Assembly: GCA_027061805.1 (NCBI GenBank)
Contig: JAMOWA010000034.1
Location: 1 to 45,601 of the forward strand
DNA from: Thermoanaerobaculia bacterium
Lineage (GTDB): Bacteria > Acidobacteriota > Thermoanaerobaculia > Thermoanaerobaculales > Sulfomarinibacteraceae
DNA length: 45,601 nt
Reading direction: 5' to 3'
The first letter of the stretch is position 1, and each line of letters begins with the position of its first letter. The notes under the pieces were generated by a model. It saw only the letters and a program-made list of their open reading frames with translations, made no database searches and was not told the origin of the DNA. The position numbers and the translations under genes were made by a program. Of this stretch, positions 2,505 through 45,601 are shown piece after piece.

Positions 2505-2690
2505 GAACCGGGGACACGGACGCGGACAGGGTCAGGGACGGGGCCAGGGTCAGGGACACCGACACCCAGCCGGTCATGGACACCGGTGCGGCCGCGGACA
2601 GGGTCAGGGGCAGGGTCACCGACACGGACACAGCCACGGTCGGGGTCACGGACCGGGTCGGGGCCAACGCCGGCGACGGGGTCCATGCCC
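2505..2690. repeat. Degenerate hexamer array 1 (GGNCNN-like)
   Basis: Low-complexity run built from six-base words such as GGGTCA, GGACAC, GGTCAC and GGACGC. It has almost no stop codons in several frames, which creates long spurious ORFs with Gly-His, Arg-Gly or Asp-Thr patterns. It lies immediately 3' of the four-helix-bundle gene (2705-3055, minus strand). The same kind of array recurs at 3398-3660, 44614-44925 and 45455-45601, always next to the same gene family. Confidence 0.8.
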
Positions 2691-2704
2691 GGGCCCACCC
2701 CCCG

Positions 2705-3055
2705 TCACCCCCTCTGGATCATCCGCCAGAGCATAGCGCGGACGTCATCGAGAAGAGCGAGGGCGCGCCGGGTGCGGGCCGGGTCCACGGAGCAGGATGC
2801 CAGGAGGAGCCGGAGATGGATGTCCAGCTCCTTGGCAGAGCCGTAGGCCACACGCCAGTGGTAGGCCCGATCCCTCCCGGAGCGCCCATCCCCTTCGGCG
2901 ATGTTGGCGGGAACCGACGCGGCGGCCCGGACCACCTGGTCGGCCAGTGGCCGTAGCGGCGCCTTCACCGTGGCGGCGAGTGCGATGGCGATCCCGGCAG
3001 CCTCGAGCGCCTTGGCCAGGGCCGGGGGTCGTGACTGGTGGAGCGCGTGGGGCAT
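2705..3055 (-). CDS. Four-helix-bundle protein, 23S rRNA IVP / S23-Avd family, copy 1
   Basis: A 116-residue all-helical protein. The central block LADQVVRAAASVPANIAEG followed by GRSGRD, YHWRVAYGSAKELD and a C-terminal LLDDVRAMLWRMI is the hallmark of the IVP/S23 family. These small basic four-helix bundles were first seen in spirochaete 23S rRNA insertions and are related to the Avd accessory protein of diversity-generating retroelements. The molecular role of most members is unknown. The ATG at 3055 is chosen because GGGAGGAAACC precedes it; an upstream ATG seven codons earlier (MNEREET) is also conserved in copy 2. About 16 of 116 residues differ from copy 2 (44923-45273). The gene sits inside a repeat island with no other gene. 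Confidence 0.88.
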   Translation of the reverse strand: MPHALHQSRPPALAKALEAAGIAIALAATVKAPLRPLADQVVRAAASVPANIAEGDGRSGRDRAYHWRVAYGSAKELDIHLRLLLASCSVDPARTRRALALLDDVRAMLWRMIQRG

Positions 3056-3206
3056 GGTTTCCTCCCGTTCGTTCATGGATCCCCGAAAGCCCCCGGGCCG
3101 CACGGCGTCAGGGGTCGCGCAGCGACCGGCCGCAGGCCGGCGTGCCCTTGACGCCGGGCGGGTCCGGGGGCCATGTCCCCACTCCAGGAACGAACGGGAG
3201 GAAACC
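3056..3206 (-). promoter_or_regulatory. Structured leader of four-helix-bundle gene copy 1: SD-containing inverted repeat enclosing two hairpins
   Basis: Positions 3056-3074 and 3188-3206 are a perfect 19-bp inverted repeat. On the minus-strand RNA the gene-proximal arm is GAACGAACGGGAGGAAACC, which contains the Shine-Dalgarno site directly before the start codon. The distal arm is its exact complement, with UUUCCUCCC. Between the arms lie two adjacent 6-bp hairpins with GCA loops: 3113-3127 (GGTCGC/GCGACC) and 3126-3140 (CCGGCC/GGCCGG), sharing two bases. The same arrangement precedes copy 2 (45274-45424). Pairing of the arms would hide the ribosome-binding site; that regulatory reading is an inference. 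Confidence 0.7.
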
Positions 3207-3298
3207 CGCCTCGCGCGGAGACGGGAGCGGCCCTGGTTCTGACCGGGCCAGGGACAGGGTCACGGACAGGCGAGCAGAGGAGTGCGACGCCCGCCCAC

Positions 3299-3366
3299 CC
3301 GCCCGTGCGAGGTGCGACGGGCGACTGCCCGGCCGGGGGAGCAGGGGAGCTGGGGCGAGAGGGAGA
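3299..3366 (+). repeat. Direct repeat flanking the first four-helix-bundle island, copy B
   Basis: Partner of 2324-2405: 57 of the first 58 bases are identical, then the 14-base insertion is absent and CGAGAGGGAGAA follows directly. Downstream, GCCGCCGGAACCGGGGACA is also shared with the sequence before hexamer array 1. The whole left part of the island therefore looks duplicated, without a second copy of the gene. Confidence 0.8.
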
Positions 3367-3397
3367 AGGGCGCGTCCGTACGCTGCCGCCGGAACCG

Positions 3398-3660
3398 GGG
3401 ACAGGGACACGGCCGCGGACAGGGACGGGGCCAGGGACGGGGTCAGGGTCAGGGACACGGTCACGGTCGCGTTCACCGGCACTCACCCGGTCACGGACAC
3501 GGACACGGACGCGGTCAGGGTCGGGGTCAGGGTCGGGGTCAGGGACGGGGTAACGGTCGGGGACACGGTCACGGTCGCGTTCACCGACACTCACCCGGTC
3601 ACGGACGCGGACACGGTCACGGTCACGGACGCGGTCAGGGTCGGCGACGGGGTCCATGGC
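3398..3660. repeat. Degenerate hexamer array 2 with telomere-like GGGTCR runs
   Basis: Long array of six-base words (GGACAG, GGGTCA, GGTCGG, GGACAC, GGTCAC, GTTCACC). The stretch 3521-3553 has repeated G3-G4 runs separated by two to three bases, giving plausible G-quadruplex potential on the plus strand. An internal subrepeat, GGTCACGGTCGCGTTCACC followed by GGCACT or GACACTCACCCGGTCACGGAC, occurs twice (near 3459 and 3567). No gene is present; ORFs through it are compositional artefacts. Confidence 0.8.
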
Positions 3661-3944
3661 CGGGCCCTTCTCCGGGATCCGGCGGCCGGGTCCGTGCTCT
3701 CGCACGGCCCCGCCGTCCTCCTCCGGCGAGGCCGGGCGGTGAGGTTGCCGGAAGGGGCTCCGGCCTCGCCGGAGTGCGGGCGGGCCGCCTCCCTCGATGG
3801 CGGGCCGCTTCTCCGGGTGTTCTTCCCGTGCGGAGCCCGGTACGGCGTTTCCCTCGTGTTCCGATCTGGATGGCGTCACGGGAAACGCCGTACCCGGCAC
3901 GCGCCGCCGAGCGCGACCTTTTCCGGGTGGGTGGGGGTAGCACG
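3661..3944. other. Non-coding stretch with a 14-bp inverted repeat
   Basis: No convincing gene. Positions 3840-3853 (GTACGGCGTTTCCC) and 3880-3893 are a perfect 14-bp inverted repeat with a 26-base spacer, and both outer sides carry CCCGG. The segment beginning CCCTTCTCCGGGATCC near 3664 resembles the segment near 15962 next to another heptamer-ended repeat, indicating shared ancestry of the two islands. Confidence 0.6.
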
Positions 3945-4100
3945 AACACGGGCAGGGACAGGGTCACACGGACGGGCACACCAGGCCGACCGCTCCACCC
4001 GGTGAAGAAGCGAAGACAACAGGTGATCTCCGCTTCAGCTGGGAGTGCCTCTTTCGTTTCACGTTTCACCTTTCACGTTTCACGAACGGGCGGGTGGGTG
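3945..4100 (-). repeat. Heptamer-ended dispersed repeat, copy 1
   Basis: Read on the minus strand, this has a C-rich outer flank (CCACCCACCCGCCC), then GTTC and four heptamers of the type GTGAAAC (one GTGAAAG). These are followed by GAAAGAGGCACTCCCAGCTGAAG and a region ending in hexamer words (GTGTGACCCTGTCCC). It matches 7815-7985 over about 150 bases, including ACACGGACGGGCACACCAGG, and more distantly 15850-15960. It is the right-hand end of the first four-helix-bundle island. Positions 4101-4305 after it hold no recognisable feature beyond C/G-rich repeats. Confidence 0.82.
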
Positions 4101-4305
4101 GCCGTCGCACGGGTGGGCGGGAGGCCGGCGCACCTCGCACGGCCGGCCGGGTGCCGCACGATCCTCGCCGGGGAGGTCGGCTTCACCCCTCACCTCTTCA
4201 CTCTTCACTCCCCGGCCGCCCTCCCGCTTGCCCGCCGGGCCGCGCCCCTGGTACGGTCGAGGGAGCCACACGGCAACAGGGCCCGGGCGGGCCCGGGAGG
4301 CGAGC

Positions 4306-5133: not shown

Positions 5134-5603
5134 GCGGGGAGGACCCCGGCCGGGAGCTGCTTCGCCTCGTTCCCCACGGGCTCTACCTGGTGGGGGTCGC
5201 GGCCGGGGAGGAGCGGTACCTCTACACGGCCTCGTGGCTGACCCAGGCCTCCTTCGAGCCACGGCTGATCGTCACGGCCGTGCGCCGCGAGCACCGGGGG
5301 CACCGGCTCATCCGCGAGGCGGGGGCCTTTTCGGTGTGCTTTCTGGGCCGGGAGCAGCAGGAGCTGGCCCACCACGGTTTCACCGCCGGTGGCGACCGCC
5401 TTGCGGGCCTCGCCTGGAAGGCCTGCCCGGAGACCGGGGCGCCCGTGGTCCTGGATTGCCTGGGCTACCTGGGCTGCCGGGTGCGGGGCTGGCTCGAGGG
5501 TGGCGACCACGACCTGGTGCTCGCGGAGGTGGTGGCGGCGGAGCGCTTCCGGGAGGGCGAGCTGCTCACCGTGGCGGACACGCCCTGGAGCTACGCGGGG
5601 TAG
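5130..5603 (+). CDS. Flavin reductase-like FMN-binding domain protein
   Basis: Encodes 157 residues starting with GTG at 5130, overlapping the previous gene by four bases. It resembles the flavin-reductase-like split-barrel family: an N-terminal strand GLYLVGVAAGEERYLYTASWLTQ, then a central FSVCFLGREQQELA and WKACPETGAPVVLDCLGYLGCRV. That domain binds FMN and typically reduces flavin with NAD(P)H or serves as an electron-transfer partner. The tight coupling suggests it acts with the acetoacetate-decarboxylase-like protein, but no pathway can be named. The stop lies 27 bases before a terminal-inverted-repeat element. Confidence 0.82.
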   Translation: MSGEDPGRELLRLVPHGLYLVGVAAGEERYLYTASWLTQASFEPRLIVTAVRREHRGHRLIREAGAFSVCFLGREQQELAHHGFTAGGDRLAGLAWKACPETGAPVVLDCLGYLGCRVRGWLEGGDHDLVLAEVVAAERFREGELLTVADTPWSYAG

Positions 5604-7799: not shown

Positions 7800-7985
7800 G
7801 GATGTACGACACGGACACGGGCAGCGACACGGACACGGGCAGGGACAGGGTCACACGGACGGGCACACCAGGCCGACCGCCCAACCCGGTGAAGAAGCAA
7901 AGACGAAGACGAACCCCACTTCAGCTGGAAGTGCCTCTTTCGTTTCACGTTTCACGTTTCACGTTTCACGAACAGACGGGTGGGC
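7800..7985 (-). repeat. Heptamer-ended dispersed repeat, copy 3, overlapping the hypF 3' end
   Basis: On the minus strand: C-rich flank CCCGCCCACCCGTCT, GTTC, four GTGAAAC heptamers, GAAAGAGGCACTTCCAGCTGAAG, then a region shared with 3945-4100 and hexamer words GTGTCCGTGTC at the far end. The terminus reaches into hypF: the last codons of hypF and its TGA come from this sequence. The rest of the 7624-7799 gap holds the upstream region of the secreted protein and no other gene that I can support. Confidence 0.82.
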
Positions 7986-10314
7986 GGGGGCCCTCCTCAC
8001 CTCGCTGCTCCCACTGCCCGCCGCGGGAGAGCTCGAGGCCGGCGAGGACGGCCTGGCCGTAGGCGAGGCCCCCATCGCCCGGTGGCAGCGCGGTGGGGCG
8101 GAGCACGCTGAGGCCGGCGGCCTCGAGGCCGCGGGTGATGCCCGCGAGCAGCAGGCGGTTGGCGAAGACGCCGCCCCCCAGGGCCACGGTGTCCACGTCC
8201 CGCGGGAGCACGGCCAGGCTCAGCTCCACGGCCAGGCGGCAGAAGGTCTCGTGGAAGCCCCGCGCCACCCCGGGCACGCTCTCCCCGGCGAGCAGGCGGC
8301 GGGCGGCCTCCGCGAGGAGCCGCGAGGAGGGGAGGCTGCGGCCCTCCAGGGAGGGTTCCGGCCAGGGTTCACAGGGGGGGGCGGCGGCAGCGGCCGACTC
8401 CAGGGCCACGGCGGCCTCGCCCTCCCAGCGGTTCTCGCCCACAAGGCCCAGCAGGGCGCCGCAGGCCTCGAAGACGCGGCCCGCGCCCGAGGCCAGGGGC
8501 CAGTCGGGGCGCTGGCCCAGCTTCAGCACGCAGGGCAGTACCCGGGCCGCCACGAGCTCCGCCAGGGGCAGGCGCGGGACGAGCTCGCCGGCGCCGGCCC
8601 TCTCCAGGGCGGCCAGGGCCACGCGCCAGGGCTGGCGCACGGCCTGCTCGCCCCCGATGAGCGGCAGGGGCTCCAGGCCCCCGGCCCGGGACCAGTGGAG
8701 GCCGCCCTCCACCAGGAGCCACTCGCCGCCCCAGGCCGTGCCGTCGGGGCCGAGGCCCGTGCCGTCCAGCGCGATGGCCAGGGCCCGCTTCCCCGGTGCC
8801 GGGAAGGCGCCGTGCTCGGCCAGGGTGGCCGCGGCGTGGGCCAGGTGGTGCTGGAGGCCGTGGACCGTGCCCCCCCGGGCCGCCGCCAGCTCCCCGGCCA
8901 GCCAGCTGCTGGCGTGGTCGGGGTGGAGGTCGGCGGCCAGGTGTCGGGCCTCCACCTCCAGGAAGGCCTCGAGCCCCGAGGCCACCTCGGCCAGGAAGTC
9001 CCGGGCGGCCTGGCTGTCCAGGTCGCCCACGTGCTGGGAGGGCCAGGCCCGGTCCCCCACGGCCAGGCAGGACGTGGCCTGGAGGTGGGCGCCCAGGGCC
9101 AGGACGGGCTCCGGCAGGGCCTCGGGCAGGGGCAGGGGCTCGGGGACCCAGCCCCGGGAGCGGCGCAGCAGCACGGGGCCCGCGGGCGTGGTGCGGACCA
9201 CCGAGTCGTCCACCCGGCGGGCGATGTCCCGGTCGTGGAGGAGGAAGGCGTCGGCCAGGCCGCCCAGGCGGACCAGGGCCTCGCGGTTGCCGGTGGCGAT
9301 GGGCTCGTCGGAGAGGTTGCCCGAGGTCATGACGAGGACCGGGGGCGCCCCCGCCCGGAAGAGCTCCACGTGGAGGGGGGTGGTGGGCAGCATCACGCCC
9401 AGGTCCCCCACGGTGGGGGCCACCCCGGGGGCCACCGCTGCATCCGGACGGCGGGGGGCCAGCACGATGGGAGAGCGGGGGGACAGCAGCAGGGCCTCGG
9501 CCCCGCCGTCCAGCTCCACCAGCGAGCGGGCGGTCGCGAGCTCCGGCACCATGAGGGCCAGGGGCTTGGAGGGCCGGCGCTTGCGCCGCCGGAGCTCCTC
9601 AACGGGGCCCGGCTCGTCGGCCCGGCAGGCCAGCTGGAAGCCGCCCAGGCCCTTGAGGGCCACGATGGCGCCTCCGGCGAGGAGCTCCGCCGCCCGCCGG
9701 AGAGCCGCCTCGCCCGTGGCCAGCTCGCGCCCCTCCGGGTCCGCGAGCCAGAGGCGCGGGCCGCAGGCGGGGCAGCAGACCGGCTCGGTGTGGAAGCGGC
9801 GGTCGCCGGGGTCCGTGTACTCCCGGCGGCAGTCCGGGCAGAGGGGGAAGCAGGCCATGGTGGTGCGCTCGCGGTCCCAGGGCAGGGAGCGCACCAGGGA
9901 GAAGCGGGGGCCGCAGGAGGCACAGCCGGTGAAGGGGTAGTGGTGGCGGCGGTCGCCGGGGTCCTCCATCTCGCGGCGGCAGTCCGGGCAGAGGGCCGCG
10001 TCCGGGGGGACCAGGGCGCCGCGGCGCTCCCCCCGCCCGCTCTCGCGGACCTCGAAGCCCTGCCCGCCGGCGGGTTCCAGCTCGCGGGTCTCCACGGCGT
10101 CCAGCCGGGCCAGGGGGGGCGGCTCCTCCCGGAGCCGCCGGAGGAAGGACTCCACGGCTTCGGGTTCTCCCTCCAACTCCATGATCAGGCCGTCGGGGCC
10201 GTTGAGCACCCAGCCGGCGAGGCCCAGTGAGGTGGCGGTCCGGTACACCCAGGGGCGGAAGCCGACGCCCTGGACGGCGCCGCGGCAGTGCAGCCTGCGG
10301 CGGACCCGGCTCAT
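7966..10314 (-). CDS. hypF: Carbamoyltransferase HypF, [NiFe]-hydrogenase maturation
   Basis: Encodes 782 residues, normal for HypF, which converts carbamoyl phosphate to a carbamoyl adenylate and loads it on HypE as the source of the hydrogenase CN ligands. Domains: an N-terminal acylphosphatase (VQGVGFRPWV near residue 15); two zinc-finger blocks with paired CPDC and CASC / CPAC motifs (about 105-190); a YrdC-like domain (ALKGLGGFQLACRAD, about 215-400); and a Kae1-like domain with HHLAHAAATLAEH and LGGGVFANR. The ATG at 10314 overlaps the hypB stop. The final residues (RPPVCS) are encoded by an inserted heptamer repeat, so the original C-terminus has probably been replaced. Confidence 0.96.
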   Translation of the reverse strand: MSRVRRRLHCRGAVQGVGFRPWVYRTATSLGLAGWVLNGPDGLIMELEGEPEAVESFLRRLREEPPPLARLDAVETRELEPAGGQGFEVRESGRGERRGALVPPDAALCPDCRREMEDPGDRRHHYPFTGCASCGPRFSLVRSLPWDRERTTMACFPLCPDCRREYTDPGDRRFHTEPVCCPACGPRLWLADPEGRELATGEAALRRAAELLAGGAIVALKGLGGFQLACRADEPGPVEELRRRKRRPSKPLALMVPELATARSLVELDGGAEALLLSPRSPIVLAPRRPDAAVAPGVAPTVGDLGVMLPTTPLHVELFRAGAPPVLVMTSGNLSDEPIATGNREALVRLGGLADAFLLHDRDIARRVDDSVVRTTPAGPVLLRRSRGWVPEPLPLPEALPEPVLALGAHLQATSCLAVGDRAWPSQHVGDLDSQAARDFLAEVASGLEAFLEVEARHLAADLHPDHASSWLAGELAAARGGTVHGLQHHLAHAAATLAEHGAFPAPGKRALAIALDGTGLGPDGTAWGGEWLLVEGGLHWSRAGGLEPLPLIGGEQAVRQPWRVALAALERAGAGELVPRLPLAELVAARVLPCVLKLGQRPDWPLASGAGRVFEACGALLGLVGENRWEGEAAVALESAAAAAPPCEPWPEPSLEGRSLPSSRLLAEAARRLLAGESVPGVARGFHETFCRLAVELSLAVLPRDVDTVALGGGVFANRLLLAGITRGLEAAGLSVLRPTALPPGDGGLAYGQAVLAGLELSRGGQWEQRGEEGPRPPVCS

Positions 10315-15849: not shown

Positions 15850-16015
15850 CGCCCGCCCACCCACCCGTTCGTGAAACGTGAAACGTGAAACGTGAAACGA
15901 ATGAAGAGCTCCCAGCTGAAGCGGAGCGTATCTTCCGTCTTTACTTCCACACTGTGATCCGGCCCCTTCTCCGGGTTCCCGCAGCCGGGCTCGTGTGGTT
16001 GCGCGGTTTCGCCGA
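15850..16015 (+). repeat. Heptamer-ended dispersed repeat, copy 4
   Basis: On the plus strand: C-rich flank CGCCCACCCACCC, GTTC, four GTGAAAC heptamers starting at 15872, then GAATGAAGAGCTCCCAGCTGAAG and a diverged region TCTTCCGTCTTTACTTCC that aligns with TCTTCGCTTCTTCACCGGG of the other copies. It continues into CCCTTCTCCGGGTTCCCGCAGCCGGG, similar to the segment at 3664. The rest of the 15724-16269 gap is GC-rich with a few hexamer words and no supported gene. Confidence 0.8.
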
Positions 16016-44241: not shown

Positions 44242-44420
44242 TGGTGGCGGATGCCCGCCCGGACCCTTGCAGTGGTTCACGCGGCTGCGAGGTCCGTCCA
44301 ACGCCCGCGGCCCCCTGGGGGACACTGCCAATATCGGTCCCGGTGGTCCCGGTGTCAAGGTTCCGTCATGGTGGGATTGCAGGGGATGCCCTCGCCGGTG
44401 TCCGTGTCGGCGCCACCCCC

Positions 44421-44480
44421 CGCCCGCCCGTTCGTGAAACGTGAAAGGTGAAAGGTGAAACGAAAGAGGGCGCAGGGGAT
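44421..44480 (+). repeat. Heptamer-ended dispersed repeat, copy 5, left end of the second four-helix-bundle island
   Basis: C-rich flank (CCCCGCCCGCCC), GTTC, then GTGAAAC, GTGAAAG, GTGAAAG, GTGAAAC from 44434, followed by GAAAGAGGGCGCAGG. The sequence diverges from other copies after CGAAAGAGG. To its right (44481-44613) is GC-rich non-coding DNA with a CTGCTCCCCTGCTCCCCAGC segment that is the reverse complement of the GGGAGCAGGGGAGCTGGGG part of the 2324/3299 repeats. Between the terminator and this repeat (44242-44420) I see no gene. Confidence 0.8.
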
Positions 44481-44613: not shown

Positions 44614-44925
44614 TGTGACGGTGTCCGTGCCTGTGACCGTGCCGGGGACCGTGTCAGGGTCATGGTCGGGGACGGCGGCGGCATCGGCGCCGGCGGACGG
44701 CGACCGCGAACGGCGGCCGCGGCAGGGTCCGTGTCCGTGTCCATGCCGGTGACCGCGACCGTGTCGGTGACAGGGTCAGGGACAGAACCGGGGTCAGGGA
44801 CAGGGTCTGGGCCAGGGCCACGGTCAGGGTCGGGGTCGGCGACAGGGAGCGGCGTCAGGGTCCGTGGCCGTGACAGTGACCGTGTCCGCGTCCGTGTCCG
44901 GGTCACGGCCAGAGCCGGGGCCTCA
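44614..44925. repeat. Degenerate hexamer array 3, includes a 91-bp perfect direct repeat (44749-44839)
   Basis: Six-base words GTGTCC, GTGACC, CGTGTC switching part way to GGGTCA, GGGACA, GGTCGG. Positions 44749-44839 are identical to 45511-45601 over all 91 bases, and the match may continue past the window end. The array abuts the 3' end of the second four-helix-bundle gene. All long ORFs through it are compositional. Confidence 0.85.
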
Positions 44926-45273
44926 CCCCCTCTGGATCATCCGCCACAGCATGGCGCGGACCTCGTCGAGGAGCGTCAGGGCTCGCTGCGTACGTACCGC
45001 ATCCACGGAACCAGACGCGAGGAGGAGCCGGAGGTGGACGTCCAGCTCCTTCGCCGAGCCGTACGCCACCCGCCAGTGGTAGCACCGGTCCTTCCCGGAG
45101 CGGCCCTCCCCCTCGGCGATGTTGGCGGGAACCGACGCGGCGGCCCGCACCACCTGGTCGGCCAACGCTCTGAACGGCGCCTTCACCGCAGCGGCCAGGG
45201 CGATGGCGGTCCCGGCGGCCTCGAGGGCCTTCGCCAGGGCCGGGGGCCTCGATCCGTGGAGCGCGTGGAGCAT
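44923..45273 (-). CDS. Four-helix-bundle protein, 23S rRNA IVP / S23-Avd family, copy 2
   Basis: Encodes 116 residues, about 86% identical to copy 1 by direct comparison (about 16 differences, no gaps). It keeps the entire SVPANIAEG core and the RAMLWRMIQRG end. Changes are conservative or in loops. The ATG at 45273 follows GGGAGGAAACC; the upstream ATG (MNEREET) is conserved too. It is bracketed by perfect 91-base direct repeats. Conservation of the reading frame despite surrounding low-complexity DNA suggests selection for protein function, which is unknown. Confidence 0.88.
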   Translation of the reverse strand: MLHALHGSRPPALAKALEAAGTAIALAAAVKAPFRALADQVVRAAASVPANIAEGEGRSGKDRCYHWRVAYGSAKELDVHLRLLLASGSVDAVRTQRALTLLDEVRAMLWRMIQRG

Positions 45274-45424
45274 GGTTTCCTCCCGTTCGTTCATGACGCC
45301 CCCCAGGCCCCCGGGCCGCCCGGAGTCAGGGGTCGCGCAGCGACCGGCCGCAGGCCGGCGTGCCCTTGACACCGGGCGGATCCGGGGGCTACATCCCCAT
45401 CACAGGAACGAAGGGGAGGAAACC
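45274..45424 (-). promoter_or_regulatory. Structured leader of four-helix-bundle gene copy 2: SD-containing inverted repeat with two hairpins
   Basis: Arms at 45274-45292 and 45406-45424 are complementary at 18 of 19 positions, and the gene-proximal arm again holds the GGGAGGAAA ribosome-binding site. The double hairpin lies at 45331-45345 and 45344-45358 with GCA loops, identical to copy 1. Arm-to-arm distance matches copy 1 exactly (132 bases). Conservation of distance and structure supports a functional leader or element end. Confidence 0.7.
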
Positions 45425-45454: not shown

Positions 45455-45601
45455 CGGTGGCGGTGTCGGGGTCCGTGTCAGTGACCGTGTCGGTGTCCGT
45501 GTCCGTGCCAGTGACCGCGACCGTGTCGGTGACAGGGTCAGGGACAGAACCGGGGTCAGGGACAGGGTCTGGGCCAGGGCCACGGTCAGGGTCGGGGTCG
45601 G
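45455..45601. repeat. Degenerate hexamer array 4 with the second copy of the 91-bp direct repeat, cut by the window end
   Basis: GTGTCC/GTGACC words switch to GGGTCA/GGGACA words; 45511-45601 is identical to 44749-44839. The G-runs at 45534-45601 give G-quadruplex potential on the plus strand. The array continues beyond the window. Confidence 0.85.

What the first reader, a model, noticed from the sequence alone, without database searches (positions are those of the whole stretch)
3056..3206. Conserved leader can sequester the ribosome-binding site of a four-helix-bundle gene
Seen: a perfect 19-bp inverted repeat (3056-3074 with 3188-3206) in which the inner arm is the gene's own Shine-Dalgarno region and the outer arm is its complement. 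Two abutting GCA-loop hairpins (3113-3140) lie between the arms. Copy 2 at 45274-45424 has the same arms (18 of 19 pairs), the same hairpins and identical arm spacing. Inference: the mRNA leader folds so that translation is off by default, and binding of the four-helix-bundle protein or another factor to the hairpins could switch it. IVP/Avd-family proteins are basic and Avd binds nucleic acid, so autoregulation is plausible.
Basis: partly seen in the sequence, partly recalled or inferred. Interest (0 to 1): 0.78.

Follow-up and report, generated by a model that had tools for sequence, protein, structure and literature searches.

The report
Dispersed gene cassette with self-folding leader
A small four-helix-bundle gene, repeated more than twenty times in this Acidobacteria-type genome, carries a ~150-base leader whose outer end is the mirror complement of the gene's own start site, so a message that runs in from outside the repeat should fold up and not be translated, much as some jumping genes silence themselves.

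Summary
It is not a pair but a family: 22 leader+gene cassettes in this genome, and the leader in 16 of 20 genomes of the taxonomic family (MAGs labelled Thermoanaerobaculales/Holophagae, Acidobacteriota). Across 48 leaders the arms differ between lineages and change together; GGAG of the Shine-Dalgarno is invariant. Predicted SD accessibility is 0.05 in full-length transcripts and 0.50 without the outer arm. The outer arm is the 5' edge of a dispersed repeat; four relatives lack the whole block at this site, and gene-less derivatives exist. I favour fold-back silencing of read-through transcripts, as known for IS10/IS50, over a protein-operated switch: the GCA hairpins proposed as binding site are not conserved and can be deleted. 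Not shown: transcription start, translation, means of spread. The dyad shows no strand preference, so a DNA-level role (element end) remains a serious rival or companion. New variant of a known kind of control, on an undescribed cassette.

The parts
2705..3055 (-). Four-helix-bundle (IVP/S23p-like) gene, copy 1, from the second ATG (116 aa)
   Evidence: PF05635 50.5 bits (cut-off 33.8), TIGR02436 57.1 bits (cut-off 24)
3056..3074 (-). Inner arm: start region with SD GGAGG (3061-3065), directly upstream of ATG 3053-3055
   Evidence: Perfect complement of 3188-3206; GGAG invariant in 68 of 68 homologues
3074..3076 (-). Conserved upstream in-frame ATG (7 codons before the second)
   Evidence: ATG or GTG in 68 of 68 homologues that carry the two-start arrangement
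3089..3172 (-). Central stem of the leader, with the near-invariant GTCA/TGAC pairs at its core
   Evidence: Covarying helix 2 of alignment A1
3113..3140 (-). Two abutting GCA-loop hairpins (subtype A only)
   Evidence: Sequence; not conserved in other subtypes
3188..3206 (-). Outer arm = 5' edge of the repeated cassette
   Evidence: homology between cassettes ends here
3398..3654 (.). Hexamer tandem array (GGTCAC/GGACAG-like) upstream of the cassette
   Evidence: TRF; lag-6 periodicity upstream of 24 of 57 cassettes, 0 of 190 controls
2518..2557 (.). Hexamer-based (18-bp unit) tandem repeat between the gene and sucC
   Evidence: TRF
44923..45273 (-). Four-helix-bundle gene, copy 2 (116 aa)
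   Evidence: PF05635 57.9 bits, TIGR02436 63.7 bits
45274..45292 (-). Inner arm, copy 2
45331..45358 (-). Two GCA-loop hairpins, copy 2, identical to copy 1
45406..45424 (-). Outer arm, copy 2 (one mismatch)
45457..45599 (.). Hexamer tandem arrays upstream of copy 2, at the contig end
   Evidence: TRF

Best explanation
The leader is the 5' end of a dispersed, apparently mobile ~0.5-kb cassette that carries one gene, an IVP/S23p-like four-helix-bundle protein. Shown: the outer arm, at the very edge of the repeat, is complementary to the start region, and this complementarity is maintained by coordinated change across many lineages. Inferred: a transcript that enters from outside contains both arms, folds into a long rod, hides SD and start codon in a 19-25-bp stem and is not translated; a transcript that begins inside the outer arm lacks the blocking strand and is translatable. 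That is fold-back silencing of read-through transcription, as in IS10/IS50, which keeps a multicopy element quiet wherever it lands. The same palindrome may also serve as a cis-acting DNA end for spread.
For: Arms pair in homologues with different sequences: 95.4% of cells paired in A1, 62 compensatory cells against 21.8 +/- 3.7 shuffled, covariation 0.201 against 0.080. On the protein tree, independent co-changes 4 of 4 at position -15 and 4 of 6 at -13, none opposite at any position shown. SD hybridisation -10.5 kcal/mol against -4.5 shuffled, GGAG 68/68. SD unpaired probability 0.05 with the outer arm, 0.50 without it. Cassette homology begins at the outer arm and ends at about the stop codon. 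22 cassettes in this genome, leader in 16 of 20 family genomes, copies largely cluster by genome, dN/dS 0.13-0.40. Four relatives keep the neighbour gene 139-402 bp upstream of sucC where this genome has ~2.97 kb. Gene-deleted derivatives with one shared junction at three sites. RBS-burying 5'-UTRs control IS transposases, e.g. ISPpu9 (PMC8450116).
Against: No transcription start is known and no sigma-70-like promoter was found in 2600-4100 (only the E. coli-type consensus was scanned), so the ON transcript is hypothetical. The gene is not a transposase. No strand preference: G.U 45 against A.C 48 cells; sense fold lower in 30, antisense in 28, whereas RNase P from the same genomes folds better on its own strand in 19 of 19. 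In subtype C (L010, L012) and R1_Bin loci (L056-L058) the arm covers the start codon or early codons rather than a GGAGG SD.
Confidence: 0.5

Rival explanations
1. DNA-level function: the palindrome is the recognised end of a mobile element (folded single strand or cruciform), and the overlap with the start region follows from compactness.
For: No sense-strand preference; palindrome kept in gene-less derivatives; leader edge = element edge; a related stem lies beside IS3-like transposase genes in two other genomes; two Y1 transposase genes in this genome.
Against: GGAG and both ATGs are conserved and the arm ends at the start codon in most loci, which a pure DNA end does not require; no target duplication, terminal repeat pair or dedicated transposase found.
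Confidence: 0.27
2. Autoregulated switch: the four-helix-bundle protein, or another ligand, binds the leader and opens or locks it.
For: IVP/Avd relatives are basic and Avd acts with RNA (general knowledge); core GTCAAGG is strongly conserved.
Against: The proposed hairpins vary and can be absent (L016); the fold is extremely stable; leaders persist without the gene beside them; the wider IVP family lacks such leaders, 0 of 20.
Confidence: 0.1
3. The leader is a stand-alone structured RNA, cut out of the transcript (for example by RNase III), that works as partner of the protein, as in DGRs or 23S rRNA intervening sequences.
For: IVS elements pair a long terminal stem with an S23p gene and are excised by RNase III (PMC4990558); conserved core motif.
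Against: No sense-strand preference; no reverse transcriptase in this genome; RNase III cleavage in the arm would remove the SD (inference).
Confidence: 0.08
4. Neutral palindrome correction: replication template switching keeps imperfect palindromes matched, so the co-changes need no function.
For: Copy L067 is mirrored even into codons 2-4; equal G.U and A.C cells.
Against: Internal loops between the stems are not mirrored: longest complementary run 2.60 against 2.70 for shuffled partners; the outer arm drifts just beyond the stem core while the inner arm stays fixed.
Confidence: 0.05

Closest known systems
Fold-back inhibition of IS10/IS50 transposase (general knowledge: Davis, Simons and Kleckner 1985; Krebs and Reznikoff 1986)
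   Same: Element-edge sequence complementary to the start region, so that outside transcripts would be silenced
   Different: Here the gene is a four-helix-bundle protein, the stem is longer (19-25 bp within a ~150-nt rod), and no internal promoter or transposase is known
ISPpu9 tnp 5'-UTR (PMC8450116)
   Same: Multicopy element whose mRNA leader buries the RBS; partial copies exist elsewhere in the genome
   Different: IS110-type transposase; proposed to be opened by an antisense sRNA; different structure
23S rRNA intervening sequences with S23p gene (PMC4990558)
   Same: Same protein family; small selfish cassette with a long inverted-repeat stem
   Different: The IVS stem encloses the gene and sits in rRNA; here the stem lies upstream of the gene and the cassette is intergenic
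Diversity-generating retroelement Avd
   Same: Related four-helix-bundle fold next to a structured region
   Different: No reverse transcriptase in this genome; no template or variable repeat sought or seen
REP/MITE-type palindromic repeats
   Same: Dispersed intergenic palindromes with gene-less derivatives
   Different: Carries a conserved gene; palindrome includes a translation start

Membership tests
IVP/S23p four-helix-bundle proteins (PF05635, TIGR02436) | Profile score above curated cut-off | tested here: met
   50.5 and 57.9 bits (cut-off 33.8); 57.1 and 63.7 bits (cut-off 24); PDB 2gsc E 7e-7
RBS-sequestering mRNA leader | Conserved pairing of SD/start with compensatory changes | tested here: met
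   accessibility
RBS-sequestering mRNA leader | Measured effect on translation | not testable with these tools
   No expression data
Fold-back inhibition (IS10/IS50 type) | Blocking arm at the element edge | tested here: met
   Homology among cassettes starts at the outer arm
Fold-back inhibition (IS10/IS50 type) | Element promoter between the arms | tested here: inconclusive
   No sigma-70 consensus hit; other promoter types not covered
Insertion sequence | Encodes a transposase | tested here: not met
   Only ORF is PF05635
Insertion sequence | Target-site duplication / terminal inverted repeats | tested here: inconclusive
   None obvious by eye in aligned flanks; flanks are tandem repeats
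Diversity-generating retroelement | Reverse transcriptase in the genome | tested here: not met
   PF00078: no match in the 97%-complete genome
23S rRNA intervening sequence | Lies inside a 23S rRNA gene | tested here: not met
   No rRNA family in the window; copy 1 lies upstream of sucCD
Known Rfam family | Covariance-model match | tested here: not met
   None, even at E<=5

The most novel reading that the evidence does not exclude
A compact self-spreading element of about 0.5 kb made only of a palindrome and an IVP/Avd-like four-helix-bundle gene, which inserts among short tandem repeats and spreads without a transposase or reverse transcriptase of its own, the four-helix-bundle protein being the active or recruiting part.
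Probability: 0.2. Interest if true: 0.85.

Novelty: new variant of a known kind. Interest (0 to 1): 0.6.

Why it matters
IVP/S23p proteins are widespread and their role, including in rRNA intervening sequences, has remained unclear. A lineage in which the gene has multiplied (over twenty copies in this genome), with the same self-silencing palindrome, gives a tractable system to ask whether these proteins take part in the spread of their own genes. It also extends fold-back translational silencing, known from IS transposases, to a different protein family, with strong comparative evidence.

Tried and rejected
Rfam at gathering and at E<=5: nothing. DGR/retron: no RVT_1 in the genome. General IVP-family leader: 20 IVP genes from other taxa show no inverted repeat at the start clearly above shuffled background. 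G.U excess as an RNA-strand signal: the G.U fraction did not separate strands even for RNase P, so only the fold-energy comparison and the G.U versus A.C count are used, with caution. Shine-Dalgarno for the first ATG: barely above shuffled. Sigma-70 promoter in the leader: none. Literature: no paper found on this cassette; the IS10 fold-back work itself was not found in the library and is cited from memory.

Full report
Observation. The inverted repeat is exactly as described: 3188-3206 is the perfect reverse complement of 3056-3074, copy 2 has 18 of 19 pairs, both with 113 nt between the arms. The 19-bp helix compares with 7.2 on average and at most 11 in 300 dinucleotide shuffles; copy 2's longest uninterrupted run is only 11 because of its mismatch. 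Both leaders fold far better than shuffles (z -4.8 and -3.6).

Gene. Both ORFs are IVP/S23p-like four-helix-bundle proteins (PDB 2gsc). Two in-frame ATGs 21 nt apart are conserved. The second has an invariant GGAG Shine-Dalgarno (GGAGG in 64 of 68; mean hybridisation -10.5 kcal/mol, shuffled -4.5), the first only a weak one. In the own-genome subtypes A and B the first ATG lies at or beyond the end of the paired arm and is nevertheless conserved, so it may be a second start; this is unresolved.

A family, not a pair. The genome has 25 PF05635 matches; 22 are cassettes with this leader or its remains (one, L008, has a broken frame), in three subtypes whose arms differ: GGTTTCCTCCCGTTCGTTC, GGTCACCTCCGGGTCGTTC and CTCGTGGTGTCCAT. 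Further leaders are cut by contig ends or have lost the gene. Relatives come from MAGs labelled Thermoanaerobaculales or Holophagae. With a covariance model the leader is found in 17 of 37 genomes of the order: 16 of 20 in the same family and one of 17 in a second family (the one-hit match in G006 is the IS3-linked stem described below). In a spread of 297 phylum genomes only this genome, one relative and one distant genome match.

Covariation. In alignment A1 (MAFFT, 19 leaders of this genome) 95.4% of cells pair, 13 pairs change on both sides, 62 compensatory cells against 21.8 +/- 3.7 in shuffles, and sliding the partner destroys the signal. The structure was derived from the same alignment, which favours it over slid versions. 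Over 48 arm pairs from many genomes, mapped on a protein tree, partners change together (4 of 4 supported independent pairs at -15, 4 of 6 at -13, 2 of 4 at -4) and never oppositely in the output I could read (part of it was cut; single columns do not reach significance alone).

What the fold does. In 55 leaders the SD is unpaired with probability 0.05 in the full transcript and 0.50 when the outer arm is left out. So the outer arm is the blocking strand. Since the outer arm is also where homology between cassettes begins, transcripts from outside always carry it. This is the logic of fold-back inhibition in IS10/IS50 (general knowledge) and resembles the RBS-burying leader of ISPpu9 (PMC8450116).

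Against a hairpin-operated switch. The two GCA hairpins belong to subtype A; subtype B and other lineages have other apical parts, and L016 lacks 63 nt of the apex while arms and gene remain.

Evidence for spread. Copies are dispersed and largely cluster by genome, and the protein is under purifying selection (dN/dS 0.13-0.40; the own-genome value mixes subtypes). Upstream of sucC, four relatives have the conserved neighbour (window 5152-5597) at 139-402 bp, while here ~2.97 kb intervene, containing the cassette and tandem repeats. The insert is a block of repeats, not a clean single cassette, so this shows lineage-specific gain of the block, not a transposition footprint. Three gene-less copies share one deletion junction at three places with different upstream flanks; their downstream flanks are partly similar, so segmental duplication is not excluded. 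ALJrbin.24 has a truncated copy in tandem with a full one.

RNA or DNA. The stems show no preference for the mRNA strand: G.U 45 and A.C 48 cells (on a structure-fitted alignment), fold energies even (30 against 28), while RNase P RNAs favour their own strand 19 of 19. A near-perfect dyad tends to be symmetric, so this does not exclude an RNA role, but it leaves a DNA role open. The internal loops are not mirrored, which speaks against simple palindrome correction; L067 is an exception. A stem with the same core lies beside IS3-like transposase frames in two other genomes, a lead towards a mobile-element origin.

Conclusion. Structure and conservation are shown; silencing of read-through transcripts is the best-supported inference (0.5); a DNA end function is the main rival (0.27) and may coexist.

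Noticed in passing
2518-2557, 3398-3654, 44615-44860, 45457-45599; other loci: Short tandem arrays (6-, 12- or 13-bp units, different from genome to genome, e.g. CAGCGG in Prado016) abut or lie near the cassette's outer arm: lag-6 identity above 0.5 upstream of 24 of 57 cassettes and downstream of 12 of 54, against 0 of 190 control pieces. Cause unknown.
   Followed up: partly
1-75: The contig starts with a 13-bp tandem array (CCGCCGCCGACCA), the type that precedes some subtype-B leaders elsewhere; many cassettes lie at contig ends, so the assembly probably breaks at them and the copy number is a lower bound.
   Followed up: partly
L128:1501-1630, L164:1501-1633: A stem with the same core (GGCGTCAAGG...CCTTGAC) lies beside IS3-like transposase reading frames in two other genomes.
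   Followed up: partly
L106, L107, L108: Gene-less derivatives: leader joined to the gene's 3' end with the same junction ATCCCCCACCCACCCGGTGAAG at three sites.
   Followed up: yes
L067:1-200: Leader copy at a contig start whose outer half mirrors the inner half even into codons 2-4: template-switch product, head-to-head copy or assembly artefact.
   Followed up: no
4048-4101, 7934-7991, 15853-15904, 44416-44469: Separate dispersed repeat with CGTTTCA/GTGAAAC heptamers, in both orientations.
   Followed up: no
130-2223: Cassette 1 lies upstream of and in the same direction as the succinyl-CoA ligase genes sucC and sucD; an effect on their transcription is possible.
   Followed up: no
3074-3076 (minus strand): Second conserved in-frame ATG (GTG in two homologues) 21 nt upstream of the SD-led start; purpose unclear.
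   Followed up: partly
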